Source of the DNA: Botryotinia globosa
Taxonomy: Eukaryota; Ascomycota; Leotiomycetes; Helotiales; Sclerotiniaceae
Reading direction: 5' to 3'
DNA length: 64,000 nucleotides
NCBI GenBank assembly: GCA_014898425.1
Contig: RCSZ01000005.1
Coordinates: 248,001 to 312,000 of the forward strand
The position numbers and the translations under genes are program-made. The notes beneath the pieces were generated by a model. That model saw nothing but the letters and a program-made list of their open reading frames with translations, did no database searches and was not told the DNA's origin. Position 1 is the stretch's first letter; each line of letters begins with the position of its first letter. Shown one piece after another: positions 1,954 to 29,271 of the stretch.

Positions 1954-3364
1954 CTACAAGGATGACTGACAGTGTTGGTGAAATAATGGGACCTTATAAT
2001 CCAACGTCTTCTTCCAGAGAAGCTCGCTCGCCTCTGCCACACCAAAAGAGACTAAATTCTTCAAATTCAACTCTTCTGTCTTCAAGTCCTTGGCATGAAT
2101 AAATTCCGCTTTAGAAACCAATTTCTTGCCCTCCGCAAAAGCAACAATAACCTCAGCCCAATCAGCAAGAATCTTTCTCGTCTGCGGTGCTTTGCTAAAT
2201 ACCCAGAAGAATGTATGAGGCATGCCCTCATATTCCTGAAGCACGACTGGAACGCCCTGTGAAAAAGCAGTTTGAGCAACCAGTCGAGAGCCATCCACAA
2301 TTTGTTCCTGTCCAGATGCAAACCACAGAGGACAAGATCCAGACCAATCAAAGGAGGCAACGGGACTTGCTAGCGGGTGAGCAAGCATCCCAGCCTCGCA
2401 GTATAAATTTGCTCGTGCAGGCTTAGTTGGCCAAATCGAACAGGTCGGAAAGCTTTTTTCTAGGTAGGGGAGCTTCTCGATGGGAACGGGAAATACATCA
2501 TGCATTATGTTTCGTTTGTATGAGGGAAGTGCATTGACTAGATCAGTTGTGACGCTCAACAGTGCGAGGCCCGCGGGTATGAATTCGGCTGGCTGAATTG
2601 TATTTCCATGGAACTTTATTACAGCATTTTTTCGTTTGAGTTGCAGAAGGACTTGTAATAAGCTTAATGCGAGAGCAGATCCGGAACTATCGCCTGCTAT
2701 CACAATGTTTTTGGCTGCGATGGCTTCGTGTGGTGAGTTCGGAGGTGGTGCGAGAAGTGAAAGGTAGGCTTGGAATGTATCGAGGAAAGCTGCTGGGAAT
2801 GGATTCTGTGGTGCCAAACGCTGCTTCACCATTAAGATTTTGCCTCCAGTTGCTTTGGCTAGGCTTCCAATGCGTCTTCGGTAGCTGGAAGGGGTATTGA
2901 GCCTAAAGCTCATATGTGAGTAGATGATAAGTGATAATTTGAAGGAGGTTTACATACACGAATGAACCGCCATAGAGATACAAAACCGTTAATGGGCTCT
3001 TGGTGCCCTCCACTAATTTTTGATACTTCTCATTTTCTGACATTAGTGGTTCGGGCGTACCAGCTTCAACTCCCTCGCGGTAACCTGTCCATTCACAGGA
3101 AAGTGGCTCGCAATTCGGACGATCATAATGTATATTATGCGTGTTTGCCTCATCGATGAGACCATGAAGTAACTCTCGAGAGTTGTCATTGTGGGAAGGA
3201 GACGGTGTTGTGAATTTGCTAACCCATACAGGACCTTTGACGGGAAGGTTCTGTGTCGTTGCAGCTTGCTGGACAGAGATAGAAGTTCTGATTGCATCAT
3301 TCCAATATTTCTCTCGCATTTGCTTCGTTGCAGCAGTCAGGTGTTTGATATTTTCAAAATCCAT
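1954..3364 (-). CDS. Alpha/beta hydrolase (HSL-type esterase/lipase)
   Basis: Two exons on the minus strand: 3364-2958 and 2902-1954. The 55-bp intron (GTATGT donor, TTTAG acceptor) rejoins the frame as GGSFV-LNTPSSYRR, giving ~451 aa. The fold is the hormone-sensitive-lipase-like alpha/beta hydrolase type. The nucleophile elbow is GDSSG (Ser ~208), the acid is in QEQIVDGSRL and the His in GMPHTFF. RLAPQNPFPAAFLD is the family's conserved block between the oxyanion loop and the elbow. The oxyanion loop reads LYLYGGSF rather than the usual HGGG. No signal peptide is seen, so it is probably cytosolic. It would hydrolyse short-chain esters or a metabolite ester. It lies ~3.7 kb from the P450 and PKS genes, with the SAT4 gene between, so a role in the cluster is possible but unproven. 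Confidence 0.88.
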
Positions 3365-4274: not shown

Positions 4275-5443
4275 CTATGATACATGAACGTCCTGCTGGA
4301 CTCGTACACCATCCGAAGGCAAGCTTTGTGTCTTATTGCCGCTCTGTATCTGTGTAGAAACCCCCGTCATATGAATGTTATCGCCATTGCTATCCCCCAT
4401 TCTGTAATAGTAAGCGGTAGGGTTAGAATGTGAGTCGGGAGCGGCCTTAGTCGTACTGCTGCCGGAATTCGCAGAAAAGTGGTTGGTCCAAAGCGAGGTG
4501 CCGATCGTGTGAAACTTGCCAAAAAGAGGTTTGTATGTTGGTAGACAAGCGCAGAGGATCGCTACTCCTAGATTGATGACCGACCATAAAGATGCTTGCG
4601 CTAGCGATACTGTGTTCTCTTAGCTTCATTTTGGGCTAGGAGAAGACATAGACTTACAGAGTGAGGCACTTGGCTTGTAAACATATCCGATTCGTATGGC
4701 GCTGGTTACAACGACCCTGTATTCATGAAGGTTATTACTTACGACCGATAATTATTGAATAGGGGTGCTTACAGTGCTCCCAAAAGGAAGATGCAGAGTA
4801 TTCCAAGCCTTTTTGACAATGGCATATGTAGGCTAAGAATAATTTTCAATGGAAGACAGAGAATGGCGATATCCAACAACATATCAACAAGCTCCATAAC
4901 TAAGAAGTATAATGGAAAATTGAAACATTTCCCTTTGACTTCTGGATTCCAAAATGTAGCCATGGGTATACAGTAGAGTAGGTCACCGATGATGGCAACT
5001 ACAAACCAAACTGTGCATATCCCTATGATAATGTAGTTGTTTCTCAGGAAACTATCGGTTGTGAAAATGCGACGATAGAAGAATAAGATCGAAAGTTTGA
5101 TGGTAGTGACATTGATAGCATAAAGTGGAGGAATAGCATACTCGCTCTTGAAATACTGTTGCGACTTAGAGGCGAGCACGAGAGGGTCGGTATACGTCTG
5201 TCCACTGCCAATAGTATAGACACCAACCAGTATATTGGCACAGAATGGAAAGAACAAAATGACACTGGCGATGAGAAGCCAGTCGTCAATTCCAAACTTG
5301 GCCCTCTTTACTACCCTAGTCCAGACGCGGAGTGCAGCCGCTAAGACAGATAATACCATAAAGAATATGCAAATAACCAGAGTCGTGTATCCCACATGGT
5401 TCAGTCCCAGCTTATAGGGGGCGGAGGAAGCTGGCGTAGTCAT
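4275..5443 (-). CDS. SAT4-family (fungal rhodopsin-domain) seven-helix membrane protein
   Basis: Three exons on the minus strand: 5443-4773, 4716-4658 and 4609-4275, with introns of 56 and 48 bp, giving ~354 aa. The middle exon reads VVTSAIRIGYVYKPSASL and the third opens with LSLAQASLWSVINLGVAILC. These are the sixth and seventh membrane regions expected for the SAT4/rhodopsin domain. Other family marks are LRVWTRVVKRAKFGIDDW after helix 1, the WFVVAIIGDLLYCIP block and CACLPTYKPLF closing helix 7. The tail is polar (Ser/Asn/Gln-rich) and probably cytosolic. No N-terminal CFEM domain is present, so this is not a full PTH11-type receptor. Members are plasma-membrane proteins of mostly unknown function; one (SAT4) sits in the satratoxin cluster. 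Its position beside the hydrolase and P450 allows, but does not show, a cluster role. Confidence 0.9.
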
Positions 5444-7083: not shown

Positions 7084-8956
7084 TCAATCCCTCTCTCTCA
7101 CTTTAACCATTATACCGGGTGTGTCTCTCGCCTGAGCGCCTAGAATGTAATCTCGGCTAGCATCTATATCACGAGCTCGATTAACTTGTGAGACGTCGAA
7201 ATCAAACCGTCGATACACAGAAGCTAAAATCAAATAGAGCTCTGCGCGAGCGAGATTGATACCTAAGCAGGATCTAGTCCCGCGATTGAAGGGGACAAGG
7301 TACCGCTCAAGCTTTTTGTTCTCATTCCCCAACCATCTCTCTGGCTTGAAAACCATAGGTTCCGGGAAGATTTTATCATTTTGATGCGTGAGTAAGGCTG
7401 TCATGTTAACTATTGTTCCGGGTGGAATCGTTTTACCATGACAGATGAAGGTTTTATCGGGGAATTGTCGGCCAATACGGTGGGTAACTGGATCGGCAAG
7501 ACGAAGACCTTCTTGGATGACAGCTGTCAAATACGGTAGTTTTTCTAATTCTGACAGCGAAAGAAGGTTTTTAGGGTCTGGAATGGCAGATTTTAGCTCT
7601 TCGTGAAGTCGCTGAGTAATCTCAGGGTTGGCCGAAATGTGATATGAGGTTCCTCTGAGGACATATGCTCTGAGTATACACACATTGTAAGCTATTGTTC
7701 GAAAAGGTTTTCTCTTTTTTACAGAGATGACTCACGTTGTACCAGAGCCCGCGGTGACTAGACTGAAAGCTTCATCACGTAGTCTGTCTCGTTCCATTTC
7801 TTGTGGTGGCAACTTGCTCTCCAGCAGTTCATGAAAGACAGTTCTATCGACAAGTTTCCTTGGTTCGGATTTTTCATGCTCAAGTCGAATGGACTCTACT
7901 TGTCTCGAAAGATCCTATACTCAGTTAAAAATTGGTTGAGTCCGAGTTATTTATTAAGATTCACCTTGCGGTAGTCCAGGATTTCTGCCATGGCAGGAGC
8001 CAAGATCTTGTTCACGTTGTCCTAAAGATGTCAGCACCATCTAAAATCAGAGGTCAGAAAGGGCTAGAGATACCGGGAGGGAATAGCTAAATCTCATCAA
8101 GTATGGGATATGAATGTTCTTAAACGTTAGCATCTATTCCAATCGATTGAACTTGAACGTACCAAAAGACTAATAACCAAGAAGTTGTCCACATCGTCAA
8201 AAGACTTCCGTCCAAAGTCTTCCCTTAAAATGCTATCTGGCTGCCTCGAGAAACAGTAGTCATTGATAATGTCCAGCGTCACTGCGGCATAGAAATACCT
8301 CATATTGAGAGTCATCCCAGATTTGCTTGCCTCCTCAAGTCGATCGCAAAGAATAAGGATAGGACGTTGGATTCTTGAGACGAGGTCGTTGATTGATTTT
8401 TTAGAGAAGAATGGGTTGAGAGCATTTCTTCTCATGCGGTGGTGCTCATGATCCTGTGTTCCTATAGTCTTTGCAAAATTAGCAACATGATTTGAATTGA
8501 TAGAGACTGAGATGTACCGCTGGATATGGACCGAATGCTTCAGCAACATTTAGAGGTTTTTGCGTTCGGCCATTTGACTGATTGAACAGCTCTTCGAAGA
8601 AATCAGGATCATCGATATGGACCTCGTTCGGGTTGATTCTAATGATGGGACCTAGAGGGAAGTATCAGTGATGTTAAAGTTGCGACAAAAGACTCAGATA
8701 GCATACCATATCGCTTGTGCAACTTTTTGAGTTGGAAGGTGTATTGACCACTGAGGTACAAATCGTAGTACCACTCGTAGAGGTAAGTCGATATAGCGAG
8801 TGGTTGTCCAGGAATATGTGCAAGAGGGTGGAATAAAAATCGATAAGTCAGTAGCCCAGCTCCGTAAGTAATCAATAAAGCTAGAAGTAAAGTTTGTATC
8901 TCCATAGTTTCTGATTTGAAGGGGACTAAAACTGAGAAGATGCTGTGATTTTCCAA
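7084..8956 (-). CDS. Cytochrome P450 monooxygenase
   Basis: Seven exons on the minus strand: 8956-8707, 8651-8518, 8468-8163, 8118-8074, 8021-7965, 7914-7736 and 7669-7084. Introns are 44-66 bp and all phases close, giving ~518 aa. An N-terminal membrane anchor (MEIQTLLLALLITYGAGLL) is followed by a proline-containing hinge (HIPGQP), so it is ER-bound. Helix I reads TAGSGTT (~319-324), the ExxR motif is EGLR (~377-380), the PERW loop is KPERWLG and the haem loop is FNRGTRSCLG with the ligand Cys near 458. All key residues are present. The sequence resembles the group often labelled trichodiene-oxygenase-like, which hydroxylates secondary metabolites. It shares a 908-bp divergent promoter with the flavin monooxygenase, suggesting co-expression. 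Two nearby Met codons (8956 and 8905) could start translation. Confidence 0.95.
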
Positions 8957-9864
8957 TACTTAGATAAAAAGCCGGAAGTTCTATCTAAACAGTGTAGCAG
9001 GATATGATAATTCTAAGCTTTTCCAAGACCAGAATGATCAATACGACTGTGACTACTAATTACACACCTTGTTAAGCCACTTTGTGAAACCTCCCGAAGT
9101 CATCCACATCCATCGTATCATACCTATTCGGCACCCCTGTACGCCACCAACACGTAGGAAGCTACCCCGCTATCTGTGCCGTATTATATGTTGTATTTTC
9201 TTCGGCAATGCAAAAAGTCACAGCCTTCGGAGCCGGTCACTTTTTCCAGCCCTGGAGTGTGTCTTTGTAACCAATGAGTCTTATCAAGTAGAAAGCTTGG
9301 CTGCAATATCGATGTCGAATTTGATGCAAATCCTAGCTCTGAAATAAATCGAAAGCAACGATTCAATTCGAACACTATTATTTCAAGGATTCCATCTATT
9401 GTTGACTACACAGGTATGGTTGATGAATGAGTAAATTCGGGTCATGCACAATATTCAGCTAAGGAATACTCCTCGCTATGCATGCTGCAATTTCCTCAAA
9501 AGATGCTAGTATACATTAGCACGGAGCTTCTCTCGGTCTGCATATGTAAGTTCCAAAAGGAGAGTTTATTGCTGCAAGTCTCATTGAATCATCTGGTGAG
9601 TATCAGGTAGTCAGCTTCTAGCTCCAGTGGGGGGATTGGGGAAGTTTGCAGCCAGGATCTTCCTACTATGGCACTGATAGTACGACTGCTTACTGAGAAG
9701 AAGATGACGGTTGAATGAAGAACTATAACTTGCCATTCTGTTGTTGCAAATTCCAACGGCTGGAGACAGAATAGATAAGTCTGATCTTCTGTAGTATTTA
9801 CAACAACTTTCAAAAAGAGATTTTACCTTCCTTATTGTCAATTCCAGCCACACTAACTGCAAGC
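8957..9864. promoter_or_regulatory. Divergent promoter region of P450 and flavin monooxygenase
   Basis: A 908-bp spacer between the start codons of the P450 (-) and the monooxygenase (+). Short ORFs here have no motif. No binding site can be assigned with confidence, although head-to-head layout commonly gives joint regulation in fungal clusters. Confidence 0.5.
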
Positions 9865-11945
9865 ATGAAGTCATCAGCACGGATCTCTACTCGTGATGCT
9901 TATGGAGAGAATTCCCATGTTTACTACCCCATCGTCATTATTGGGGCTGGACCTTCAGGCATTGCCATGGGATGTCAACTAAAAAGCAAGCTTCATTTTG
10001 ACCAGTTCAAAATATTTGATCGCCAAGAGGGGCTTGGAGGTAAACTTTAAATTTCTGCGCCTATTTAGAACAGATCAAAGCAAATTAAAGCTGATGAGAA
10101 TGATCATTAGGCACGTGGTGGGCAAACAGATATCCCGGAATCGTGAGCGTCTCAAAACTCCACTTCTGTACCATCATTTAGCTAATCCATTCGTTTAGGC
10201 TTGTGATGTGTAGGTTTGCCAATCATTGGAGTTGCAACGCTTTCTTACTAGGCTTATTTAGACCAACCTTGTTTTACTCATTTTCCTTCGCCCCGAATTA
10301 CACTTCACCAACAGTGTTTCCTTCAGGTTGCGACTATGTGATGTATCTCAATAAAGTAGTAGAACGCTTTGAGATAGCAGACAAGATCAATTTAAACACG
10401 GAAGTCGAGAGTTTGAAATGGAAAGAAGAGGAAGAAGAATGGGAAATCGGGATCTGTCGTGTTTATGGAGAGGGAAAACTCATAACTCATAGTCGACTTG
10501 AGATAATCCGAGCCAAAATCGTTATTAGTGGTGCTGGCATTCTTACCAATCCTAATGATTGGCCAGAAGTTGTCTCTGGAAAGAACGCATTCAGCGGTGA
10601 GATTTTGCACTCTGCTCGATGGCCGAGAAATCTCAATCTTGTTGGAAAAGACGTGGTGCTTGTGGGCTCAGGATGCACCGCCGCCCAGATTGCACCCGCA
10701 ATTCTTCAATCAAAGGTCAAGTCTTTGACGCACATTATACGAAATCCACCGTGGTTTGTTCCTCGCATTAAAGAGCCAGGAGGTAAAGAGGCTTACGCGA
10801 AGTTCGCACCCATGATTTACGGCTCCGTACCGATTTTGGGCTTCCTCGTTCGATTCATTGTTTGCTGCATGTCTGAGTTACTATGGTACGCTACATTCAA
10901 GCGAAAGAACTTAGAGCTTCGGAAAATATCGGAAAAGTCGTCCCTGGACCATATGAGAAAGCTGGCACCCCAAAAATATCATTCCATGTTAACGCCGCAG
11001 TATAGTCTTGGCTGTAAGCGCCGCGTCTTCGACAACGACTGGCTCCAGAGTATGAGAGATCCTCGCTATACCCTAACTACACAGCCTTGGATAGGTATGG
11101 GAGGTAATGAAGTAACTGTTGAGAGTTCCGAATCAAACTCCAACCTCGCTACACTGCCGAGCCAGTATCCTGCCGATATTCTTATCTTAGCAACGGGATT
11201 CAAGGTATCACAATTTCTACACCCTCTCTCCATTATGGGACGCCAGGGTATCTCCCTTCAGCACGTTTGGAAGGAGCGAGGAGGCCCCCAAGCGTATATG
11301 GGAACAGGAATCGACCAATTTCCAAATTTCTTTATGATCATGGGCCCAAACACCTTCGTTGGTCACACCTCAGTCATAATGAGCATCGAAAACAATGTCC
11401 AATATATTCTCAAGATGATTGCCCCTATTCTACAAGGGCATGTTAGATGTCTGGAACCAAAGCCCGAGGCAGTAGAAAAGTGGGTACAAGACATCAGAAG
11501 AGATATGCAAGGAACCGTTTTTGATGCCTGTCAAAGCTGGTATAACGATTCTGGAGCTTGGAACTCTGTCATATATCCGTAAGTATGGCCATAATATCTG
11601 AGTCTAAAGCCTTTGTAAAGCTGAGTTGGCGCTTAGTGACTCAACTGTATGCTGACTTTTTTTCGCAGCCGATCTCAACTTGACTTTTACCTCCGCTGCA
11701 GGTCTCCCAAATTGAACGATTGGACCCGAAAGCTTTCCGTACAAGGCCAGCGTCGACGAACGCGCCACCAAATGATAAATATGGCCATGATGATGACAAT
11801 GATTATTGCCATCTGCTACGGCGTGTGGTCAGGTCGAAGCTTCGAAGCTTTAGTGGATAGAAAGATGCTGTTACGAAAGCCGATTCTCACAATAATAGAC
11901 AGCACTATCACAGCGATGCAGGAAGTCAAGCAATGGTTCTCGTAA
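9865..11945 (+). CDS. Type I Baeyer-Villiger / FMO-like flavin monooxygenase
   Basis: Five exons: 9865-10039, 10111-10142, 10199-10209 (an 11-bp microexon), 10262-11578 and 11669-11945, giving ~603 aa. Start: the first ATG in the exon-1 frame is 9865. FAD-binding GAGPSG is at residues 27-32. The spliced segment across three introns reads GLGGTWWANRYPGI then ACDVP, the conserved block of this family. The Baeyer-Villiger fingerprint FxGxxxHxxxWP is present as FSGEILHSARWP. The NADPH Rossmann motif is GSGCTAAQ, followed by the ILATGF motif and a C-terminal SQLDFYLRC block. A hydrophobic stretch near the C-terminus may tether it to a membrane. Known members insert oxygen beside a ketone to make esters or lactones, or oxidise heteroatoms. 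Its site between P450, MFS and PKS points to tailoring of the polyketide; the substrate cannot be read from sequence. Confidence 0.93.
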
Positions 11946-12336
11946 GCTGAGCCTCTAGCTCAAAATTTATGAACTTAAGTAGTTAGAGTAGGGAAGATCA
12001 GAAGAGGCTTTGGCACAAGTTAGACTGTGAAAATACGTCTTCTCACCTGTGCTTTATTTTTTCACGTGTGGATTCCAGGTGTACCTCAACTACTTCCGCT
12101 TCTTTGCGATTCAGCCTTCAGGATTTGTAAGCCCCATCAGAATATAACACATAATCAATTGCCCACTCGAAGTACTTGTTCGAAGTTCATGGTGGTCAAG
12201 AAAAGGTTTATTTTAAGCTTATCCCTTTCGTCGCGACTTTCGAGCCCCACATTCACATCTCCACTAAAATCCTTGGAAGACAAGATTGTCACGACATTCC
12301 AACATTCGCTAACCTTACATTTGTTACGTTGATATC
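11946..12336. other. Convergent 3' spacer between monooxygenase and MFS gene
   Basis: 391 bp between two convergent stop codons. I see no gene motifs; the overlapping ~70-100-codon ORFs have no family signature. Confidence 0.5.
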
Positions 12337-14273
12337 TTATGCGAGTCTGCGAGGTTTTCTCTCCCACATAAGCCCTATGGCCAAGAGCTCAGCAGCGCAA
12401 AAGCACAGTATCATGACCAATTGATTCTTATATCCCTGAGCGAACGCGGTTCGAACCGCGATTTGATCGCCCGGAGACAGTAAAGCCACCGAAGAGATAT
12501 TCTGAAGAAGGTGATTAACAATTTCAGTAGGTAGGATATCAGCCAGGGCTGATATGACATTGCTACTTAGTAGACTAGTAGCAATTGCAACGCCAATCGC
12601 GCCTCCAAGAATACGCATCTGTGTGACACCGCCGAGTGCAACAGCTACGCCATTGTTAGTTCCTGAAAACGAAAGGAAATTTGCATTATGAAAATCTGTA
12701 GGTACCTAGAAGTCGCTTTTCAACGATGAAGGGTGTGATGCTTAATAGCGTCGTTAATCCAAGGCCAACACCCATTCCTGCCAGCACTTCATAGCCGTAG
12801 AAACTAGCCGGCATATGGGCTGTTACTGGTATTGAGTATAAGAGACCAGTTCCAAGGATTTGCAGAACGGTGGCTGCGGTCAGCACATGAATCGGGGGTA
12901 TTCGACCTTTCGCCGTTAAGCCCCCAGTTATTGCTGAACCGACAGCAACAGACATTGTGTATGGCAAAACGCGCACACCCGCAATCAAGGTGGAGGTATT
13001 GCTGATGTTCTGGACTCTCTGTGGAATTTCAATCACCAAAGTCACGAAAGGGACTCCTGATAAGAGCGCGTAACTAACTTCGTGTTAGTTAAGAATTTGA
13101 TGTTTCAATCGGACTGAGTAAACCTTACATATATATGCCCATAAGAACCCTATGTTTCAGGAATTCCCATGGGATGACGGGTTGCCTCGCAGATTGTTTC
13201 AAAAACAGCAATCTCTGCCATGCAAAAAACAGAGCAAGAAGAACAAAAGCAAGTACCAAGAAAGTGATTACTAAGGCCGAATTCCAAGCGAAGGCTACCC
13301 CCGCCTCCTCGAAAGCTACAATAAGAAAGATACAAGCGGTTGGGAGTAACAAGAAACCCACATAGTCGAATTTTCCCCGCAAATCACTCAGCTTTGGTGG
13401 CAATAGTACTGCTTTAGATGGTCTGTTGTCGGGGAAGCCTGCAGGCATTGCCAATATGACTAGGACTAATCCTACCATACCGATAGGCAAGTTAATCCAA
13501 AAAATCCATCTCCAGGTCGTATGCTGAGGAATTGCACCTCCCAGAAGTGGACCCAGTAGAAAACTAATAGCCAGAGCCAGAGAAACGATGCCGTTGAATT
13601 TGCCGTATTGCTCCGGCACGACCATCTCCGCTACGATTATAGGTACCATGCTAAATATTCCAGCACCCCCAACTCCCTGTAGGGCTCTGAAAGTAATACT
13701 ATATCTTTTGATTAGGGTTATGAATGACTGAGGTTATGGGTTCCTTTTCCTTACAGTTGGGTACTATTTGATGCACCTCCACAGCCACCCGAAAACGCCA
13801 AAAAGATCACAAGGGCGACAACAAGCATAATTTTACGACCAACGAGATCACTCATCTTAGCCCAAATGATCAGAGCGCCTAAAAAATTAGAACGCATACA
13901 CGCGTGTACCAAGGCTTACTTACTAAAGTATGTGGCCAAGTAACTATTCACTATCCAACTGCTCTGGTCAAATGCCTGAAGGTCATCAGATATAGTAACA
14001 AGAGAAGTGCTGACGATGGTGATATCCAGCGAAGATAGCATGAGACTCAGGCATAGACTGCAAACAAATCAGTCAAGTCTTACGCTTATCAAACATTCAA
14101 GCATACCCAAGTGTGAGCAGACCTAATCGCCACCCAGAAAGGTACCTTGTGCCGTCACTAGCACTCTGGTCGCTGATGGTCCCCGAATCCTCTGGCACCA
14201 CTTTTCCAGGGGCCACGGAGGAAGGCATTGTGCCCGAGGCTTGCTTCGTCGTGATAACCTCAAGGCTGGTCAT
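12337..14273 (-). CDS. MFS drug:H+ antiporter, 14-TM (DHA2-like) exporter
   Basis: Six exons on the minus strand: 14273-14107, 14057-13924, 13878-13755, 13698-13129, 13073-12706 and 12662-12337. Introns are 43-56 bp with phases consistent throughout, giving ~562 aa. The spliced product shows LDITIVSTSLVTIS in TM1, SALIIWAKMSDLVGRK (the loop 2-3 MFS motif), ALQGVGGAGIFSMVP (the motif C region) and LGPLLGGAI. About fourteen hydrophobic segments are separated by short loops, and the hydrophilic N-terminus is Ser/Thr-rich. These proteins export toxic or secondary metabolites across the plasma membrane using the proton gradient. Position opposite the PKS suggests product export and self-protection. 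Start: 14273 gives a normal-length N-terminus; in-frame Met codons also exist at 14285 and 14321. Confidence 0.93.
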
Positions 14274-16918
14274 TATTCTCAACATACAGAGAAAAGAGTA
14301 ACAGGTGAAATGTATTTTCAATCGATCTCCTCCAGATTAGGCAGATTATCGCCAGAGTGAATGCTTTCTTTCCTGCAGCCTTGATTTGTCTTGAAATTGG
14401 TATCGCATGTGCCGTTACACGTTGATGGTTGTACTACATATCTGCATTGCAAACAAAGCGAACATTGATTTTTTCGTCAAATCAAAAAGCCAAGCCACAT
14501 TCAAGTATTTCTGTAATATATCCAGTTGAATCCTGAAATCGCCCCAGTGATTCAGTGACTGCGATATAATTTGACCTGTGTTTTGGCATGGCGAAGAATG
14601 CCTGACTGGTCGTTGCTATTCCAAAGCCACTCAGGTGGGTTTAATTTCCGATTTATGCATTTGCTTTTCACCGCGATCTCAAGATCCAGTGGCGTTCACT
14701 GCATTGATGCTGTGCCTCTGGAATATTGAAATAAAATATATATTGCAGCTGCAGTTGCAGGTGTAGGTGCATCTGTATCAATTTTGCAATCCCTTTCAGT
14801 GAAGGATTCACTACCATGGGGAGCCCTGCAAAGATCGCAATGCTGGTGAAAAACGGGACGTCTGATTCACTTGGCATGCACCAGCAATAACATAAAGCTT
14901 CGGAGAAAATGAATCCCTGTTACCAAGGAGAAGAATAAATCTAATGTTATCAGATGGTTCTCCTTGGGTTTCTCTTTCTGGTGCTTGTAATATCAACCAA
15001 CCAATGCAGAACATCTCTACGGAGAACATTTTAGGAATCCTGATTGGGATGCAAATCGTGATGTATAAGCTCGGAAGTCCGAAGATCATACCACTTAACT
15101 GCGGTGAAACTGACTCCCGTCGGAATGGGAGCTAAGATCGATTAAGTCATTATATGGTGGTCATGATATTTTGAGTAGCATTGAAGGTTTAGACACTTAA
15201 TTAGGGCCTGTTTGGCTTGAGGCTCGCATAAATAATACATTATATATATAAAAAATACACATAAATTTCTTTGTATTTTATAACTCAAAATATACACTTT
15301 GAAATTGTTTTGTTTAAATCAACTTGAAAATATAAAACAAGTATATATTTTTGTTTGTATTCTTAAATATATTATCAAAATAAAAAGCACTAAGTTAATT
15401 TGTTATATAATAAATCTTTCATATATATAACTTTCTTCCTTCTTACCGTTTTTTATATTGTTTTTTATATTCAATATATATACTCAATATATAAACTATA
15501 ATTTATTATATAATATTATATAACAATTTTATTATCACTTTTAATATTATTTTCAATCTTTATTTTATTTTAGATTATATTTTGTATAATAAAAATTAAA
15601 CTATTGTGTAATAAATTCATCTTTTTTTTATGTAATACAAAAATTTATTTATATGCATTTTGTCAATATTAATGCGAGCCTCGAGCCAAACGGGCCCTTA
15701 GCTTAAGTGGGCATATCTCTCACATAAGTACCGGCAAGATTTCTTCACCCAGAGTGATAGGATAGTAGCAGCTAGCAAGGATCATTGGGTATTTTATATT
15801 GTATTTCTACTTCCTTTAAAGGTTGACAGGTGATATTATGCAGCCAGCGTGTCATCAATCCTAAACTCAGACCGAGCCGCACACAAAACCAATTGGGAGG
15901 TTGGTAAGTCAGCCGACGATTGTGGAGGGATATCCAATAATCATCAGAAAAATCATGAGTATTGCTCCTGGTAAAAAGGTCACTTAGGAGAACTCATATC
16001 AGGATCGGCTCTTTGCAGCTGAGATGTATTGTTCTATTCTTGGATATATTGGCAGCATGAATTCAAGGACGTTCCATAAGCCACATGTATTGATTGGCTA
16101 GTTTGAGGAGATTGGACGGATACGCTATGCTTCATCACTGATAAAACCCACTATCTAAGAGTGTGCACTTAAGGGGAATAGATGAGATCAGAACAGACTA
16201 GTCAACGTCCGAATTTAGTCTATTCAGATGATGATTCTGCACACACACATGGTCACAATCCTAGGGCTCCAAGCGTACTTTGTGGAGAGATCAAATTTTG
16301 CATGAATCTGGTATTAAATTCTTCGTGATATGAAGATCCAAGATTAGCTCAATTTTAGTCTAAATTTGAACCAAAGTATTGTAATGATGCCCGTTAGTAT
16401 TTTGTAAGTTGGCTAATGGAAGCTAAAAAAACAGTCGCATTATACAGGTCTAAGAACGTTATGGTTTGAAGCTCGCCATTATAAAATTATGAATTATAGC
16501 GTTTCTACTCATCTTAAATCTCTGTACTTCGTGTTGTTTCACGGCAATTCATTTATACCTACTACTTCGGTATCATCATGACTGGGGGATGCAAAAAGAA
16601 TATATTGGTAAACGGGACTGCCGTTCCAATTATGCACCTTCCAATACTTCAGCAATACTTCCATTGTTCTATTCCTCACACAAGATTGTTCAGATATAGC
16701 TCTCAGTAACCTATCATCAGCTCGTCACTCTCAATCTTTCACTCCAGATCTTAAAGCCATAATACTGCATCATTAGTAGCACATTATTCGCTAGCACTGC
16801 TTAGCTGATTGAATTTCCCATCGAGATACATGCTTCTAGTTTGGTCGCTCAAAAGATTAAATTGGTACTCGAATTCACAAGTCAAGCAAGTCCACATTCA
16901 AAAACGACTATTTCAAGT
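14274..16918. promoter_or_regulatory. Divergent MFS-PKS intergenic/promoter region (contains a MITE)
   Basis: A 2.6-kb spacer between the start codons of the exporter (-) and the PKS (+). A 494-bp MITE occupies 15204-15697, listed separately. The rest shows no gene. Small ORFs at 14578-14766 and 14811-15135 have no motif. A pathway transcription factor gene, often found in such gaps, is absent. Confidence 0.55.
15201..15700. mobile_element. Tourist-like (PIF/Harbinger-type) MITE, 494 bp, with TTA target-site duplication
   Basis: The element proper is 15204-15697. Its left end begins GGGCCTGTTTGGCTTGAGG. The right end, read on the other strand, begins GGGCCCGTTTGGCTCGAGG. The two agree over 26 bp with two mismatches. 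Both ends are flanked by TTA (15201-15203 and 15698-15700), the 3-bp duplication of PIF/Harbinger elements. The GGGxxTGTTTGG terminus matches the known Tourist family consensus. The interior is extremely A/T-rich and has no transposase ORF, so it is non-autonomous. It lies ~930 bp upstream of the MFS start and ~1.2 kb upstream of the PKS start. Confidence 0.88.
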
Positions 16919-19900
16919 ATGGCTGAATCTTCTCACAAAATCGAGCCATTGGCCATTATTGGCTTATCATTCAAGTTTCCTCAAGGTATGGAAACTGCCG
17001 AATCCCTCTGGGAGCGACTCGCTACTAGTCAATCAGCCTGGTCGCCATTCCCCGAGAGCCGTTTAAACTTCGACGGCGTTTATGATCCAGATTCTGCAAG
17101 ATTGAATAGTGTAAATAAGCTCTCAACCCTTGCATACAATGACAGTCACTGAGAACGTATAGTTTCCTCTGAAAGGAGCACATTTTGTGGACGGTGATCT
17201 AGGCGCATTCGATGCACCGTTTTTCACAATTGGACCTCATGAAGCGGCGGAAATTGATCCTCAATCTCGAATATTGCTTGAAGTAACATACCGAGCCCTA
17301 GAGAATGGTATGTTCCTACAGGTACTCCAGCAAAATAATACTAATCATTCTTATAGCGGGAATACCATTGAAGAAAGTAGCCAATTCAAACATATCTGTA
17401 TACACTGGAAGCTTTGGAGATGACTACAAGTCTTTCTCTACCAAAGATCCTCAATTTGGAGGCCAGTATTCAGCAAGTTCTGTGTCAGCTAATATGTTAG
17501 CCAATCGTATCAGCTGGTACTTTGACTTACGTGGCGAGTCCATCAACATGGACACAGCTTGCTCTAGTACTCTTGTCGCATTTCACACTGCATGCCAGAG
17601 GCTACGGAATAATGAATCTGAAATGGTATGTCGATAAAAATTGCATTGATCTCTAGTAGTCTAATGAGGATGTTAGGCCATTGTAGCTGGTTCAAATTTG
17701 TTTTTGAGTCCAGATATGGCTATGTCATTAAACAATCAGAATTTTCTATCACCAGATGGGAGATGCTGGAGTTTTGATGAGAAAGCGAATGGGTATGGTC
17801 GTGGTGAAGGATTTGGAGTGTTGATAGTGAAGCGATTAAGCGATGCGCTCAAGAACAATGATGCCATACGAGCTGTTATCCGAGCCACAGGAACGAACCA
17901 AGATGGAAAAACGCCAGGTATTGTTCAACCAAGTAGAAGTAGCCAGGAGCAACTCATTCGAGATTTATATGAAAAAGCTGGTTTGGACATGAGCCAGACA
18001 AGATATGTGGAGGCGCATGGTACAGGAACACCTGTCGGAGGTAAGGCGAAGAAAATGCCATGAAACGAATAATACTAATGTGATAGGATAGATCCTATAG
18101 AGGCAGGAGCAATTGCCGATGCGTTCAGCCACGCTCGCTCTGCTGAATCTCCTCTGTATATAGGAACTATCAAATCAAACATCGGCCACCTGGAGGGTAC
18201 CAGTGGTATAGCAGGTCTCATCAAGAGCGTTTTAATGCTTGAACACAGAATGATTCCAGGAATCGCAGGACTTGAAAATGTCAACCATGCTATCGGAGCA
18301 GAGCATCCACATTTGAAGGTATCTTTCTCAGTTGATACTGTTTAACGTAGAATTCAGACTTACTCTATCATGTTTAGTTTCCAAAAGAGCTCATACCATG
18401 GCCCTCGGAAGGCTTATGTCGCTTGTCAATCAACTCTTTCGGATTTGGAGGAACAAATGCCCACGTGATAATGGAAGATGCGATCGGTCATCTCAAGCTT
18501 CGAGACGATGTTTCGGACCACAAACAGATAAACGGAAACATGGATTCAGCACACAATAAAGCTCCTGTGTCTAATGGTTTCCATCATCATGAGGTTAGAA
18601 AAATTCTAGTGTTCTCATCTCAAGACGAGAATGGCATCAAACGACTCGAATCGGCATACAAAGGGCACTGGTCCCGAATGACCATGAATAATTTTAGTAA
18701 TTCATACATGAATAGACTAAGCTACACACTGAGTGACCGACGAAGTTCTCTCTTATGGAGATCATTTGCAACATCTAACTCTGAAAACGATTTGACAGCT
18801 GGGATCAAGTTTTCGCCGGCCATACGTGCCATCTCTCAGCCACGTCTTGCATTCTGTTTTACAGGACAAGGCGCTCAATGGTATGCGATGGCTCGAGAAA
18901 TTCAGGCTAACGCTTTCAGAAAAAGTCTTATAGAAACATCCGAGCTTCTCAACGAAATGGGATGTTTGTGGTCACTACAAGGTATTTTTTTTCCCATTGC
19001 TTCTCATGCCAACGCTAACTAACCCACTTTCAGCTGAACTTTCACGGGATAAAGAAACTTCTAGAGTGAATAGACCAGAACTCAGCCAACCAATTTGTAC
19101 TGCAATACAGATAGCTTTGGTTGATCTTTTAGAGAGCGTTGAACTTCGACCCTCGGTGGTATTTGGCCATTCATCCGGCGAAATAGCGACTGCGTAATCA
19201 TTATCTCTTTCCAAATATATTACCACATGCTTACAGAATCTTTAGATATTGTATTGGAGCTTTGGATAAGCGTTCTGCTATGAAGATCGCTTATCATAGA
19301 GGTTTACTCTCAGCTAAGATAGCTGAAAATAATAGTACCCAAGGCGGAATGCTTTCGGTTGGTTTATCTGCAGAAAAAGTTCTGTTGTATCTCACCAAAG
19401 TTGAAGTCAAATTTGGTTACTCTGGAATTTCAATAGGATGCATCAATAGTCCTAGTAATGTCACAATTACAGGCAATATGAACCACATAAACTATCTCCA
19501 TGAGATTCTGGAAAAAGATAACATCTTCACCCGAAAACTACTGGTTGGTGTCGCATATCATTCTCATCACATGAGTGCCGTAGCCGCAGCATACTCGGAG
19601 CAATTAAGTAGCTTGTCTTCCCAGGTATCTGCAATACCTATCACCATGGTATCTTCAGTTACGGGAAAAGTAGTCAGCAGTGATGAGCTACGTCAGCCAA
19701 GCTACTGGGTTAAAAACATGGTATCCCCTGTGAAATTCCTCGACGCGGTTACTTGTGCTAGCTCACTAAGCATATCAAACGATGGAGTCATTCTGCACGA
19801 TAGCTCAAAAGACTGTTTCGATGATGTGCTAGAAATTGGACCCCATTCAGCCTTACAAGGACCTTTGAAAGATATCTTCAAGCAATCGGATAAAAATTCA

Positions 19901-22900
19901 GCTATAGGGTATTATTCCGTCCTGATACGCAATGTCAATGCAAATAATTCGATGCTTGAAACGATTGGAAATCTTTATTGTCGGGGTCATAGTATAAACA
20001 TCCAAGCTTTAAACGACCAGAATTCCTCAGGGACTTGTTCCTTAACCCCGTTAACAGACTTGCCGGAGTATCCTTTTGATCACTCTAAATCATATTGGCG
20101 TGAATCTCGCCTTAGCAAAGGTCATAGATTTCGCAGAATTCCTCGTAATGACTTTCTTGGCACTCCAGTACCAGATTGGAACCCACAGGAAGCTAAATGG
20201 AGACGTCGAATTAGAATCTCGGAAGATCCTTGGATTGAGGACCACAACATCTCCAACGCATGCATTCTTCCTGCTTCTGCTATGCTTGTCATGGCAATAG
20301 AGGCGGCGAAGATCATGGCTAAGTTGAGATCTAAGAAATCCATTTCCGGATTCATCATCCAAAACGTCGTCGTGTCACGAGCTCTCACTGTTCCTTCCGA
20401 TTCAGATGGAGTCGAAATGGAATTCTACCTCCGACCATGCGGACTTGCATCTGACAGAGAGATAACATGGTCAGAGTTCCGAATTTATACCTCAGAGAAT
20501 CATGATTGGGTTGAAGTATGTCGAGGCCAAGTCCGAGTGACTCATGGAGATCTTGAAAATGAGGTCGATAATGGGATTGAGCAAGCTTTAGATGATGAAT
20601 ATCATCGAACGGAGCTCTCGCGTATCCGCGCCTCTAGCTACCAGAAAGTGGATATGCAAAACTTCTACCCGGTGCTGAAAGAAAATGGAATTAATTTTGG
20701 AACCGCTCATCAGACAATCAGAAATGGTGCTTATGGTCAGGATAAAGAGTGCATTGCCGAGATTGCGCTGGATAGTTGGATACCAAAAAAAAGAGAACTC
20801 CAACAAACAAATTATACTATCCATCCTACCTCACTCGATGGAATGTTTCAATTGGGTCTGTTAGCTTTGGTGGCAGCGAGGATGAAGATAAATCCAAGTG
20901 TCATAGTTGGGCTTCGCAGATTATGGATTGCAGAAGGCAAGATTAATATTCCCGGTTCATCGACGATGTCTACGTATGCAAAGTCTGTAATGAATGGTTC
21001 TACAACCACTCTCATGGATGCAGTTGCATTTGATAAAGAAGCAACTAATCCTATATTAATCATTGATGGACTCGAAGGAAAATTCTTGGTGCAGCCGGAC
21101 AGGCCTTGTGATACACATAATCGTCACATCTCCTGGAATTTTGATTACAGACCGGATATCGATCTCCTTTCCAAGAAAGAGCTGGTTCAATATGTTTCCA
21201 ATTCAAGCAATATTCAGTCTGCTCCGCTCAGACTAGATCATGACGTCAAGCTATTATTATATCTCTGCATTCTGAGAACGTTGAATCGGCTAACTGACTT
21301 TGAAGTTGCGGGGCTGAAGCCACACCATATCAAATATTTACAATGGATGCAATATGAAAGAACCAAGCTTTGCAGGTCAGATATGTGCAATGGCGCAGTC
21401 AATGTTAGAGAGCATATCGACGACAATGCATTCTATGAAAATCTTTTAAACCGTCTGAGGCATACCAATGCGCGAGGAAAACTCTACGCGATACTTGCAA
21501 CAAATCTCTACGATATACTCACAGGAGAGATCGATGTTCTCGAAGTCATGTTCGCGGAGCCATTAGTAAAAGATTATTATAGAGAACTATACAAATCCAC
21601 AAATGGCTTATACAAAACTCTCACCTATCTCGACACTCTAGTCCACAAGCATCCCAATATGAAGATATTAGAGATCGGAGCAGGTACAGGAGGAATGACA
21701 AACTACCTCCTCGATATTCTTGCACAGAACGGTGCTCGTGATCCTCGTGTTGGTACGCCTCGATTTGCCCACTACACATATACGGATATTTCCGCTGGTT
21801 TCTTCGAAGGCGCGACTTCTTTATTCGAGAATTTTCCAGATATGGTGACGTTCAAAGTACTGGATATTGAGAAAGATCCAGTCAAGCAAGGATTCGAAAT
21901 AGAAAGCTATGATTGCATCATTGCAGATAACGTTCTTCACGCCACTCAAGACCTCGAGATTACGATGAAAAACGTGAGGATGCTGTTGAAACCCGGAGGA
22001 AAGCTTCTACTTTTCGAGCTGACGGTTCCAGAGGTTGTTCGAACGAATTTTGCGTTTGGTCTGCTCCCTGGCTGGTGGCGCTTTAATGACAAGTATCGCA
22101 GTTTTAGTGCTGGGATCTCAGATGAAGTATGGGATGAAGTGTTGAAGAGTACTGGATTTTCGGGTATCGACTTCAACTTCAAAGACTACGATGAAGATGA
22201 ATGCCATGAGCATAGCGCACTTATCTCCACATCTCGTGAAGATTTATCAAATGCAACACTGTTCCCTCCAACGATAGTTATACTCGATCCGAAGTCTGAT
22301 CTCCAGAGCAAAACTTACGAAGCGCTGCGTGATCAATTGCGATTATCAGGAACCACAGAAATTACTTCCACTCCACTTAATGAGGTCACCACGTTCAAAG
22401 AAAAGCAGCCCTTTATTGTCGTTCTTTTGGAAATCGACAGACCTTTTTTTCACGAGATGACCGAGCCGGAGTTCGAGGATCTCAAAGCTATGTTCTTGAC
22501 TTTTGAGAATATTTTATGGGCTTGTAAAGGCGGAGGAGATCGACCCAATATGCCAGAGTATGCACTTGTTCAAGGTGCTTTCCGCGCACTACGAATGGAA
22601 AACGTAAGACTCAAATTTATCTCCATCTCATTCGAGACTTCCTCGAATAATGCCACGCATCTCGCGAATAGAGTCTTTGAGGTCTACAGAGAGATTTCCA
22701 CCAAAGGTGTTAAGGACTGCGAGCAGGAATATGTAGAACGCAACGGTATGATTTGCATCGATAGAGTAGTCGATGCAGATTACATGAATCAGAATTTCTC
22801 TGCAACGACAGACGAAATATTACGCAGCGACTGTGAGTTTTCAAAGGCGTCTCCAGTAACTCTCAGTATCAGAACTCCTGGACTGCTTGATACTCTTGAG

Positions 22901-25121
22901 TTCATCCAGGACGACACTCTCAATACTGATCTCGCAGCCGATGAGATCGAGATCAAAGTTGAAGCCAGCGGTGTTAACTTCCGAGACTGTCTCATCGCAC
23001 TGGGACGAATACCCAGCGTGAGTTTCGGGTTTGAGTGTTCGGGTCGTGTTTCCCGCACTGGATCTCACGCGACCAAATTGCAGGTAGGCGATAGGGTGTG
23101 CGCAAGCACAATTGGAACGTATAAAACCTATGCTCGTTGCAAGACAAGTAATGTCATTCCTATCCCCGATAACATGTCTTTTGTTGAAGCGGCCGCGATG
23201 CCGGTAGTATTCACGACGGCGTACTATGCCCTTGTGCATATAGCCCAATTGCAGAAAAATGAATCTGTTTTGATACATTCTGCAGCCGGCGGAACAGGGC
23301 AAGCTGCTATTCAGGTAGCAAAACTCCTAGGCGCTGAGATTTTTGTGACTGTGGGATCGAAGTCTAAGAAGAACTTGCTTATTAGTCTGTATCAGATACC
23401 GGCAGATCATATTTTCTATAGTCGCAATTCCCTATTCGTCAAGGGCATCAAAAGAATGACTGATGATCACGGCGGTGTCGATGTTATCTTGAATTCACTC
23501 AGCGGTGATCTTCTAGTAGACACATGGCAATGCATAGCGCCATTCGGAAGATTTCTCGAAATTGGCAAGAAAGACATCTTAGCGAATGGGAATTTACCCA
23601 TGCTTCCATTCTCTCGAAATGCCTCTTTTCATGCCATTGATTTGAACGAGGCGCAAAAGTACCGACCAGGACTCCTTATCGATCTCCAAAGAAGTATCAC
23701 CACTCTACTTTTCGATAACAAAATACGACCACCGCAACCTATCCACGTTTATGGGATCGGAGAGGTTGAAAAAGCCTTCAGGTATCTACAGAGCGGGAAA
23801 AACTCTGGCAAGACAATCATTCAAATCCAAGGGAATGATATGATCAAGGTAAGTTCAACCACTCCCACACAAATGAATCAATCTCACAAAAGTAGACATC
23901 TCTCAAAAGACCACATCCGTGGGCATTTCCAGAAAACGCAACCTACATTATCGCAGGTGGACTCGGTGGTATCGGTCGAAGTACTGCACAATGGATGGCG
24001 GATCGCGGAGCCAAAAATCTAGTCTTGCTCTCGCGATCTGGACCCACATCAGAAGAAGCATCGCAATGCATTGCCAAATTACAAGCTCAAGGGGTACGTG
24101 TAGAAATCCCTCGATGCGATATCGCTGATTTCACATCCCTCGAGTCGGTTCTCAATCATATACATAAAACAATGCCGCCTATTAAAGGGTGTATCCAATC
24201 TGCCATGGTGTTACGAGTAAGTGTTGATTTCGTAAGTGTTATCCAAGCATGCTAACAAAAGTACAGAGTAGTGTATTCGAGAATATGACATACTCTGACT
24301 GGCGAGGAGCATGCGATTGCAAAGTTTCCGGGACCTGGAATCTGCACACTCTCCTCCCGAAAGGTTTGGATCATTTTATCGTGTACTCTTCCATCTCAGG
24401 TGCTATTGGTGGAACAGCATCTGTAAACTACAGCGCCGCTTGTGCCTATCAAGATGCAGTGGTACACTACCGCAATAAAATGGGCGAGAAAGCTACTACT
24501 TTCAACCTGGGAGTTATGATAGACGACGGCATCTTGAGAGATAACATAGCGGTGAGAACTGCGTTACTTGGTACTGGATACTTAGTTGGCATAAAGCAAA
24601 AAGAGATGTTTACTTTACTTGAACATCACTGTGATGCGCTTTTGAGTATACCGACCACTCCACTCAAGTCCCAGATTCTTGTAGGTATCGACACCCCTTC
24701 GTCGATAAAGGCGCGGGGCGCTGACGTACCCTCCATGATGACACTTCCGAAGTTCAGGGGAACATGGAATATCAATGAGAAGGGCACAACAGATATGAAA
24801 GAAGCGGTGTTTAGTGACGTGGCCAGTCAATTACATTGCGTAGCTTCACAAGCAGAGGCAGCCAGAATTATTGCCAATGCATTGATGGAAAGATTGAGCA
24901 ATGCACTGGCTGTTCCTCTACAGAACTTGGATTCCTCGCGCCCTATGCATATCTATGGGGTCGACTCGCTAATCGCCGTTGAGTTAAGAAATTGGTTCAA
25001 CCAAAAGCTCAACGCCGAGGTCGCAGTATTCGAGATCTTGGGGGAAGTCACATTCCAGGACATTGGAGTTCTAGTTGCCAGTAAAAGTAAGCTGGTGGAG
25101 GCACTTTTGACAGGGAATTGA
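16919..25121 (+). CDS. Highly reducing type I polyketide synthase (KS-AT-DH-cMT-ER-KR-ACP)
   Basis: Ten exons: 16919-17110, 17163-17307, 17357-17625, 17677-18040, 18092-18318, 18378-18981, 19034-19193, 19237-23848, 23896-24216 and 24267-25121. Introns are 43-59 bp, giving ~2582 aa. Start 16919 is the first in-frame ATG ([17 protein letters not shown]). KS: DTACSS Cys ~181, EAHGTGTP His ~316, NIGHLEG His ~356. [10 protein letters not shown] and GHSSG with Ser ~647. DH: His ~990 and Asp ~1188 (HPTSLDG). c[11 protein letters not shown] ~1465. ER: NADPH site HSAAGGTG ~2002. KR: GGLGGIG ~2212 and NYSAAC with Tyr ~2353. ACP: GVDSL with Ser ~2532. There is no thioesterase or release domain, as is usual for fungal HR-PKSs, so release must be in trans or by hydrolysis. 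The expected product is a reduced, C-methylated aliphatic chain. DH and KR motifs deviate from consensus (see findings). Confidence 0.97.
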
Positions 25122-25800
25122 AAGTGTAAATAATCCAGGGCTTCTTCTATCATATCTTACAATCCAATATTGTTCCTTAATCCTGTAAGACTAAGAGGTT
25201 TCATACACTTAATCAGTAAAAAGTTTCTTTTTCAAACATTCAAATGCCACCCTTCACACTATACATCGATGCCACGAAGTGATATTGACGCTATTCTAAT
25301 CCTGTCCTGCGATATGTACAAGTGTAAGATAAAACTTCTAATTCTATCTCTTAATCTCTAGTAAATTAATCCCATACCTCTCAAAAGCCATCTAACTACT
25401 TTTATCCTCTAAAATTGAGAGGTCATTTCTTCTTATATCTAGCTTCTGGATAGATTGTGCGAGTGTGCGATTGTACAATCTGGACTGAGACCTAGCGATA
25501 TGAACTAAAAAGTTGCCATCTGCACTAAAAATTCGAATTTTGTCACTGCTTATCCCAAAAAGACTCCATACAGAGATTCTACTAAGAATAATCTCTTTAT
25601 ATTAATACCGTCCTTTCGACAGACCCCTTTTTAACTAAACATTGTGAATATCGAGGATACAGACAATCATAGATACCTTTCCTGTCTCCATACCAGAGGT
25701 AAGAACACCTCAACTCTGCTTCATCGTATAATCTTCTCAAAACTATTCTTGACAATTTTTATTTCTACAATCAAGAGCGTCCATATAGGACTTTCGATAT
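25122..25800. other. Convergent spacer downstream of PKS
   Basis: 679 bp between the PKS stop and the stop of the minus-strand membrane protein. It is likely 3' UTR sequence; no gene or repeat was recognised. Confidence 0.5.
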
Positions 25801-26681
25801 TCAATTTGCTTTTAGAGTGATTTCCTTAAAATACCAGCCTATGAACAGAGTAGTACCTGGTCCAGCAAATACAGTTGCAATGGGAAGCGTTATACTGTAA
25901 AGCAGCCATTCTCCATCTAGCAGTCCAGCTATATGAAGATCGCAGAAGGAAAATACTAACCATAAGAATGCGACCAGAAAGGCGCCGACTTGATCCGCTT
26001 GAAGCGCTTTTCGCGCACGAAAAATGAAAATCTGATTGCACTTCGACTCTTGGAAGAAAGATTGTCGCGATCGGGAAAGGCGAGGATGTGATTGTAAAAA
26101 GCCATACAGAGGTGGAGATAGCACTAAGAATCACGAGCGGGCTTCCCAAGCTTGTAAATGATCCAGCACCTGCAATACGATCTTTGGTGATACTTGAGCT
26201 AACAGTGACGGCAATACCAATCCATAGTGGGGGTGTTTGCCATGCCCAGGTCCAGTAGTGTCTCGTTGTAAGATCGGTTCCGAGGAACATGAGAAATACC
26301 TCCGCGGTATGCAGCAGCAGAACAACAGGAAATAGTGTCCAGATATCATTATGACCAACTGTGCGAGAAGAGGATGGAAGTTTGGCAAGATCGTGCGCCC
26401 CTGGACCAAAGACCAGACAAAGGAATAAGAAAAAAGGAGCAACGATTCCGATACCAGAGAACTGCGCCAAGCATGTGAAGATCGTAGGATTAGAATTCCT
26501 AAGGTCAATAGCATATTTTTTCCACAGAAAATGGAACTCACAAGTATGCTGGACTCAGAGCGTTTGCGGGGCGAAGTGACTCCAACAGAAACATCGTGTA
26601 CAGCGGGCCGAGATCAGTGAGAAAGGAAAACATCTGTTGCGATGTAACCTCGTCGTAGCCAAGCGTTGACGGACTAAACAT
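25801..26681 (-). pseudogene. Multi-pass membrane protein with apparent one-base frameshift
   Basis: Exon 1 is 26681-26542 and exon 2 is 26498-25801, separated by a 43-bp intron. The spliced N-terminus reads LGYDEVTSQQ, then LGPLYTMFLLESLRPANALSPAY, then NPTIFTCLAQFSG. About 278 residues with six or seven hydrophobic segments are expected, ending ITLKAN. From memory this pattern (ESxRxxN followed by PTIF and APxxFF) occurs in poorly characterised membrane proteins next to fungal PKS clusters; some similar small polytopic proteins are cyclases. In exon 2 the frame ends its good similarity at IFLP and resumes, one base out, at ESKCNQIFIF. Removing one A near 26048-26052 would restore a continuous frame. 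No canonical intron of usable size fixes it without losing plausible sequence. It may be a true disabling mutation or a sequencing error. Confidence 0.6.
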
Positions 26682-28333: not shown

Positions 28334-28363
<30 letters not shown>

Positions 28364-28440
28364 AAGAAGAAGAAGAAGAAGAAGAAGAAGAAGAAGAAGA
28401 AGAAGAAGAAGAAGAAGAAGAAGAAGAAGAAGAAGAAGAG
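28334..28440. repeat. (AAG)n trinucleotide microsatellite, ~35 units
   Basis: An uninterrupted AAG/GAA run of ~107 bp, purine on the plus strand. It sits 87 bp before the larger CAGA array. ORFs across it are artefacts. Confidence 0.97.
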
Positions 28441-28526: not shown

Positions 28527-28758
<232 letters not shown>

Positions 28759-29271
28759 TGATAAACAAATAGATAAACATTCGCGACAAACTCAAGAACC
28801 AAGATTTCAAAAAGAAGAAAGATAAAAATTCAAGCGTATAAAGACAAGGCTAATAAACGAACAAAACATCAGACCCATTTCATTTCATCTGATCCATCTT
28901 ATATACTCCTCCCCATAAAACTCCCCATCATTCCATTCCATCCCATCCCATCCCATTCAATCCAAACAATCCCGCTCAAGCAATAACCATCCATCCATCA
29001 ACTTTTTGTTTCTTGCCTACCAACCAAGCTAGCCTAATGAGATGAATGCCAACGCCAGTACTAACTTTAACGCCAATAAATAATATGTACCCGAGCAAGC
29101 CTAGCTCTTCCATGCGAATTCGTCACACATATCTGTACATATTTAATAGCACCCCATTATCATTTCGTTCCAATTTATCTTCTGTAGCATGAGTTTCTGC
29201 ATACACTCCCACCGAACTAGATTCTTACAACCAAGACCGCTATTAAAGATCTTATTCGGTGATAAATGTTA

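What the first reader, a model, noticed from the sequence alone, without database searches (positions are those of the whole stretch)
7084..26681. Candidate polyketide cluster: HR-PKS, Baeyer-Villiger-type monooxygenase, P450, MFS exporter and a small membrane protein
Seen: a complete KS-AT-DH-cMT-ER-KR-ACP PKS with a divergent MFS gene, a P450/FMO divergent pair, and a membrane protein of a type seen near PKSs. An esterase lies at 1954-3364. Known: such groups make and export reduced polyketides. Inferred: the FxGxxxHxxxWP monooxygenase could convert a chain ketone to an ester or lactone, which the esterase could then cleave. That would be a distinctive tailoring logic. I cannot match it to a characterised cluster by eye, and no pathway transcription factor lies within the window.
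Basis: partly seen in the sequence, partly recalled or inferred. Interest (0 to 1): 0.75.

Follow-up and report, generated by a model that had tools for sequence, protein, structure and literature searches.

The report
Orphan PKS21 polyketide gene cluster, Botrytis
This stretch of a Botrytis mould genome holds a real gene set, shared with other fungi, for making and exporting an unidentified polyketide, including an enzyme that looks able to insert oxygen next to a ketone; it is a known kind of cluster whose product is still unknown.

Summary
Window 7084-26681 encodes, with clean spliced models, a P450, a Baeyer-Villiger-type flavin monooxygenase (BVMO), an MFS transporter, a complete KS-AT-DH-cMT-ER-KR-ACP polyketide synthase (2579 aa) and a small membrane protein, between housekeeping genes. 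By neighbouring tags it is the orthologue of the orphan PKS21 (SsPKS21/Bcpks21, 'unknown polyketides'). PKS, BVMO, P450 and MFS look like one conserved unit: in Sclerotinia sclerotiorum the tags are 055480 (P450), 055490 (BVMO), 055510 (PKS), and 12 of 20 chosen PKS relatives share a contig, judged by length, with one of the oxygenases. The BVMO reading rests on homology; substrate unknown. New here: the membrane protein is homologous to a membrane domain that, by my splice model, is fused to an FAD monooxygenase in a second PKS cluster of this genome, a hint that it partners flavoenzymes. Verdict: real, conserved, orphan; new member of a known kind.

The parts
16919..25121 (+). HR-PKS gene (PKS21 orthologue), 10 exons, KS-AT-DH-cMT-ER-KR-ACP, no release domain in the Pfam table
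12337..14273 (-). MFS transporter, 6 exons, divergent from the PKS
   Evidence: 59% over 270 aa to the MFS half of an Aspergillus hancockii PKS record
9865..11945 (+). Type I BVMO-like flavin monooxygenase, exons 9865-10039, 10111-10142, 10199-10209, 10262-11578, 11669-11945
7084..8905 (-). Cytochrome P450, 7 exons, divergent from the BVMO; I-helix AGSGTT
25801..26681 (-). Small integral membrane protein, 3 exons; homologue of a membrane domain that follows an FAD monooxygenase in another PKS cluster (C4)
1954..3364 (-). alpha/beta-hydrolase (Abhydrolase_3) esterase, 2 exons; membership in the cluster doubtful
4275..5443 (-). Fungal_rhodopsin-domain membrane protein, 3 exons, between esterase and P450; membership unknown
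15203..15698 (.). AT-rich (18% GC) element with terminal inverted repeats alike at 25 of 27 bases, dispersed in the genome; lies between MFS and PKS

Best explanation
A conserved orphan polyketide cluster (PKS21). Shown: the gene set, its integrity, its linkage in other fungi, and the family of each enzyme. Inferred: the HR-PKS builds a C-methylated reduced chain; the P450 oxidises it (possibly to a ketone); the BVMO inserts oxygen beside a ketone to give an ester or lactone; the MFS exports the product. Release of the chain needs a partner in trans, since no release domain was found in the PKS; which one is unknown. The membrane protein may assist a flavin-oxygenation step.
For: Complete PKS. 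S. sclerotiorum tags P450 055480, BVMO 055490, PKS 055510, all on a contig of 2434682 bases; B. deweyae BVMO EAE98_005011 and P450 EAE98_005012. The A. hancockii PKS record carries an MFS half 59% identical to the window MFS over 270 aa. Quick trees of chosen rows: in PKS (27 rows) and BVMO (22 rows) the Sclerotiniaceae and the close Eurotiales rows are two starred sister clades. Sharp housekeeping borders: Shg1, IF-2B, DNA pol alpha B to the left, PTP, UCH, MFAP1 to the right. BVMO: PDB relatives, NCBIfam pentalenolactone D synthase 117 bits (far below its cut-off of 1100), KR pair in 15 of 15 aligned relatives counting one RR.
Against: No product, no expression data of this species. FxGxxxHxxxWP is strict in only 6 of 15 aligned relatives and 19 of 120 hits. 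The pair is listed without a close PKS in Bogoriella (BVMO M1820_000945, P450 M1820_000946), and Stromatinia cepivora has the BVMO at 78% while its only listed PKS is 39%; but lists hold the best 120 of 796 to 1798 and rows stand for 90% clusters, so a PKS may be hidden. A. bertholletiae PKS and P450 lie on contigs of different length; 7 more of the 20 show no oxygenase row. Most shared contigs are hundreds of kilobases or megabases long, so equal length shows only one chromosome. SS1G_03594 (P450) is not named in the paper that lists PKS21 as up. In the P450 tree relatives from species with no listed close PKS fall inside the clade.
Confidence: 0.85

Rival explanations
1. Same cluster, but the flavoenzyme is not a Baeyer-Villiger catalyst in this pathway: it epoxidises or hydroxylates the chain, and no ester is inserted.
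For: The motif is loose in the family (6 of 15, 19 of 120); in the second PKS cluster a membrane domain of the same family follows an FAD_binding_3 monooxygenase, a class that (recalled) often makes epoxides.
Against: The best-scoring solved relatives are BVMOs, and the KR pair is conserved. The window enzyme has FSGEILHSARWP and GGTWWANRYPGIACD.
Confidence: 0.35
2. P450 and BVMO form a separate detoxification pair that merely adjoins the PKS and MFS.
For: Divergent pair with its own promoter; Bogoriella and Stromatinia cases without a listed close PKS.
Confidence: 0.08
3. The esterase 1954-3364 belongs to the pathway, releasing the chain or cutting the Baeyer-Villiger ester.
For: SS1G_03597 lipase/esterase lies six tags from PKS21 SS1G_03591 and three from the P450 SS1G_03594, which fits the window's order; Ser, Asp and His of a hydrolase triad look present by eye; the PKS needs a release partner.
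Against: Different induction times in S. sclerotiorum (48 hpi against 6 and 24 hpi); a rhodopsin-domain gene between; identity of SS1G_03597 with this gene is inferred from numbering only; the oxyanion motif reads YGG instead of HGG (by eye).
Confidence: 0.25

Closest known systems
PKS21 locus: SsPKS21 (SS1G_03591) and Bcpks21 (Bcin05g08400)
   Same: S. sclerotiorum PKS sscle_07g055510 is 76% identical over 97% of the 1586-aa exon query, with P450, BVMO and PKS tags in the window's order; PKS21 is listed as a key enzyme shared by the two species (SB10) and Bcpks21 under unknown polyketides
   Different: The passages I read name only the PKS and describe no tailoring logic. SS1G_03591 = sscle_07g055510 is inferred from neighbouring tags. 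Which listed B. cinerea protein is Bcpks21 was not checked.
LovB-type fungal highly reducing PKS (7cpx)
   Same: Best PDB match, 801 bits, best stretch residues 1-1798
   Different: ER signature intact here; LovB (recalled) relies on a separate ER, LovC.
Type I Baeyer-Villiger monooxygenases (steroid, cyclohexanone, phenylacetone monooxygenase)
   Same: 162 to 116 bits, KR pair, motif
   Different: Distant by score; C-terminal extension of about 90 aa with a hydrophobic stretch (by eye); fungal pathway context.

Membership tests
Fungal highly reducing PKS | KS-AT-DH-(cMT)-ER-KR-ACP domains in order | tested here: met
   motifs of all but DH checked
Fungal highly reducing PKS | Iterative synthesis of a reduced chain | not testable with these tools
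   needs product
PKS21 orthologue group | Closest to S. sclerotiorum PKS21 with conserved neighbours | tested here: met
   rests on tag numbering
Type I BVMO | FxGxxxHxxxWP fingerprint | tested here: met
   FSGEILHSARWP; not strict in relatives
Type I BVMO | [AG]GxWxxxx[FY]P[GM]xxxD fingerprint (recalled) | tested here: met
   GGTWWANRYPGIACD; found in 36 of 120 hits
Type I BVMO | Active-site Arg in a KR pair (position recalled from phenylacetone monooxygenase) | tested here: met
Type I BVMO | Ketone to ester activity | not testable with these tools
   assay needed
Cytochrome P450 | Heme Cys motif | tested here: met
   FNRGTRSCLG
Cytochrome P450 | Usual I-helix acid before Thr | tested here: not met
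   AGSGTT; no acid in 18 of 19 aligned rows (Gly in 15). Usual, not required, so membership stands
Co-expressed biosynthetic cluster | Co-expression of members | tested here: inconclusive
   PKS21 and the likely esterase differ in one published table; P450 not named there

The most novel reading that the evidence does not exclude
The small membrane protein is a stand-alone form of a domain that elsewhere is fused to flavin monooxygenases of polyketide pathways, and it works with the BVMO at the membrane, for example by cyclising or channelling the oxygenated intermediate: a two-part oxygenation module for reduced polyketides.
Probability: 0.15. Interest if true: 0.55.

Novelty: new member of a known kind. 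Interest (0 to 1): 0.36.

Why it matters
Most Botrytis secondary-metabolite clusters have no known product (stated in PMC6417074, section 9). This one has relatives in Sclerotinia and in distant Aspergillus and Penicillium species, so one product elucidation would inform many genomes. If the BVMO acts on the chain it would add a defined case of oxygen insertion into a reduced fungal polyketide; the membrane-domain link gives a protein without a Pfam family a first functional lead.

Tried and rejected
Codon-usage gene finding gave a near-complete model only for the PKS (2573 of 2579 aa); splice-site dynamic programming plus reading by eye against relatives gave the rest. The first DP model of the FMO start was wrong and was replaced. 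Monilinia paper PMC8988988 was opened and its abstract concerns an NRPS cluster. Paper searches for six S. sclerotiorum new tags gave none; for the pair of annotation names none. A PKS origin nested in Eurotiales (recent transfer) was looked for and not seen: the two groups are sisters in a quick tree; the P450 tree puts Sclerotiniaceae inside a Eurotiales-rich clade, weakly (86). Pfam, NCBIfam and PDB gave no family for the membrane protein. A regular-expression count of P450 I-helices over 120 hits mis-hit other stretches in many rows and is not used as a count. Structure prediction of the BVMO was lost.

Full report
Place. The window is G000:C5:248001-312000 of a 45.68-Mb, 27-contig genome. 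The PKS protein in the window is identical, 2579 of 2579 residues, to Botryotinia globosa EAF00_003839, and the contig length given for that protein, 2724154, equals that of C5. I take the genome to be B. globosa.

Genes. All five genes of the finding exist, with open, spliced models. The PKS has KS, AT, DH, cMT, ER, KR and ACP domains and no thioesterase or reductase release domain in the Pfam table; short signatures of all but DH were checked and are intact. The FMO start, broken into short exons, carries GGTWWANRYPGIACD, and later FSGEILHSARWP. The P450 has the heme motif but Gly in place of the usual I-helix acid (AGSGTT), as do 14 of the 18 relatives aligned with it; 3 others have Ser, Val or His and the most distant has Glu. 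The esterase is a two-exon Abhydrolase_3 protein. Between esterase and P450 lies a fungal-rhodopsin-domain membrane protein.

Borders. Left, in C5:238001-248000: COMPASS-Shg1, IF-2B, DNA polymerase alpha subunit B, CRAL/TRIO (the Shg1 frame runs on into the window, its RS-rich end at 2-1519). Right: protein-tyrosine phosphatase, ubiquitin hydrolase, MFAP1. No Zn2Cys6 domain was listed in the window.

Conservation. In S. sclerotiorum P450, BVMO and PKS carry tags 055480, 055490 and 055510 on one contig; B. deweyae BVMO and P450 have consecutive tags. Beyond these, I matched species and contig length across the three lists of 120 best hits (of 1798, 1238 and 796). Of 20 PKS relatives that I chose (the 18 named rows of P0002-P0028, plus P0045 and P0084; 43% identity or more; unnamed rows and rows below that left out), 12 share a contig with a listed BVMO or P450: S. 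sclerotiorum, A. tanneri, A. minisclerotigenes, P. longicatenatum, A. coremiiformis, P. chermesinum, A. spectabilis, A. mulundensis, A. steynii, A. unguis, Glarea lozoyensis and A. hancockii. Eight do not: A. bertholletiae, with PKS and P450 on contigs of different length, and seven with no named oxygenase row. An unnamed contig of 71783 bases also holds both PKS and BVMO relatives (P0007, P0137). Equal length is a proxy, strong on short contigs (41-104 kb in three named cases), weak on long ones. Rows stand for clusters at 90% identity, so species can be hidden in either direction. The A. hancockii PKS record includes an MFS half 59% identical to the window's over 270 residues. Quick trees of chosen rows (27 PKS, 22 BVMO, 32 P450) each give the Sclerotiniaceae as one starred clade; for PKS and BVMO the close Eurotiales rows are its sister, while for P450 the Sclerotiniaceae sit, weakly supported, among Eurotiales rows. 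Against: Bogoriella shows the pair, and Stromatinia cepivora the BVMO, without a listed close PKS.

Known name. SS1G_03591 is S. sclerotiorum PKS21 and the P450 hit SS1G_03594 is three tags away, so the window PKS is the PKS21 orthologue, by inference from tags. PKS21 is among 19 key enzymes reported as shared by the two species, most with microsynteny; a later paper lowers 19 to 16, naming pks1, pks18 and dmats1 as changed. Bcpks21 is listed under unknown polyketides. S. sclerotiorum has two HR-PKS clusters on chromosome 7 without a named product (07_1, 07_5); I did not determine which is this one. PKS21 is up 2.5-fold at 6 hpi and 2.2-fold at 24 hpi on B. napus; SS1G_03597, a lipase/esterase near by, only at 48 hpi, 5.1-fold. 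Bcpks21 transcripts fall in a Bcdim5 deletion and rise with Bchda1 overexpression; it is named among co-expressed genes in a Bcras2 study and as raised at the translation level in a Bcfrp1 deletion.

BVMO. Of 34 solved relatives with 66 bits or more, 21 are named as Baeyer-Villiger, steroid, cyclohexanone or phenylacetone monooxygenase or OTEMO; ancestral animal FMOs come last with 22-28 bits. A KR pair that aligns with the BVMOs' is kept in 15 of 15 aligned sequences, counting one RR. The classical motif is strict in 6 of 15 and in 19 of 120 hits. I therefore call it BVMO-type, activity untested.

Membrane protein. Outside its own exons its only match in the genome is at C4:2852612-2852812 (E 3e-4), about 10 kb from a KS-domain locus on either side. 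The chance that a random place lies within 12 kb of one of the 17 other KS loci (my grouping) is at most about 0.9%. There the homologous stretch follows, after one inferred intron, an open frame that holds a weak FAD_binding_3 tail (E 0.039) and the start of the membrane domain; upstream frames match FAD_binding_3 clearly (E 7e-10), and an HR-PKS end (ER, KR, ACP) lies before them. Aligned to the spliced domain, the window protein gives 25% identity over 279 columns, 57 bits, E 2e-13 against three splice variants. No transcript confirms the fusion. A domain that seems fused to a flavin monooxygenase in one polyketide cluster and is free beside another flavin monooxygenase in a second suggests a shared step. 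This is one fusion, and a different flavoenzyme family, so it is a lead only. Whether the protein is conserved in the linked species was not tested.

Mechanism, graded. Shown: genes, families, conservation. Likely: one pathway, exported product. Inferred: P450 then BVMO on the PKS chain. Weak: esterase cleavage. Unknown: release, product, regulation.

Noticed in passing
15203-15698: AT-rich (18% GC) element with terminal inverted repeats alike at 25 of 27 bases in the MFS-PKS intergenic region; 22 matches in the genome (its own included), six further places with long matches at 75-81% identity: looks like a MITE that may affect PKS expression.
   Followed up: partly
7084-8905: P450 lineage with Gly in place of the usual I-helix acid (AGSGTT) in 15 of 19 aligned rows, from Botrytis to Aspergillus and Penicillium; by pattern a few Penicillium, Paecilomyces and Talaromyces hits read AGSDTT.
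   Followed up: partly
L015 1678-9593 (C4:2845000-2854999): A second HR-PKS cluster: PKS end, FAD_binding_3 monooxygenase followed by a membrane domain (fused by my splice model), P450.
   Followed up: partly
about 28334-28440 and 28530-28760: Long AAG-type and CAGA tandem repeats between the membrane protein and the phosphatase gene, seen by eye.
   Followed up: no
G000:C8:339668-341059: A 40%-identical paralogue of the BVMO elsewhere in the genome.
   Followed up: no
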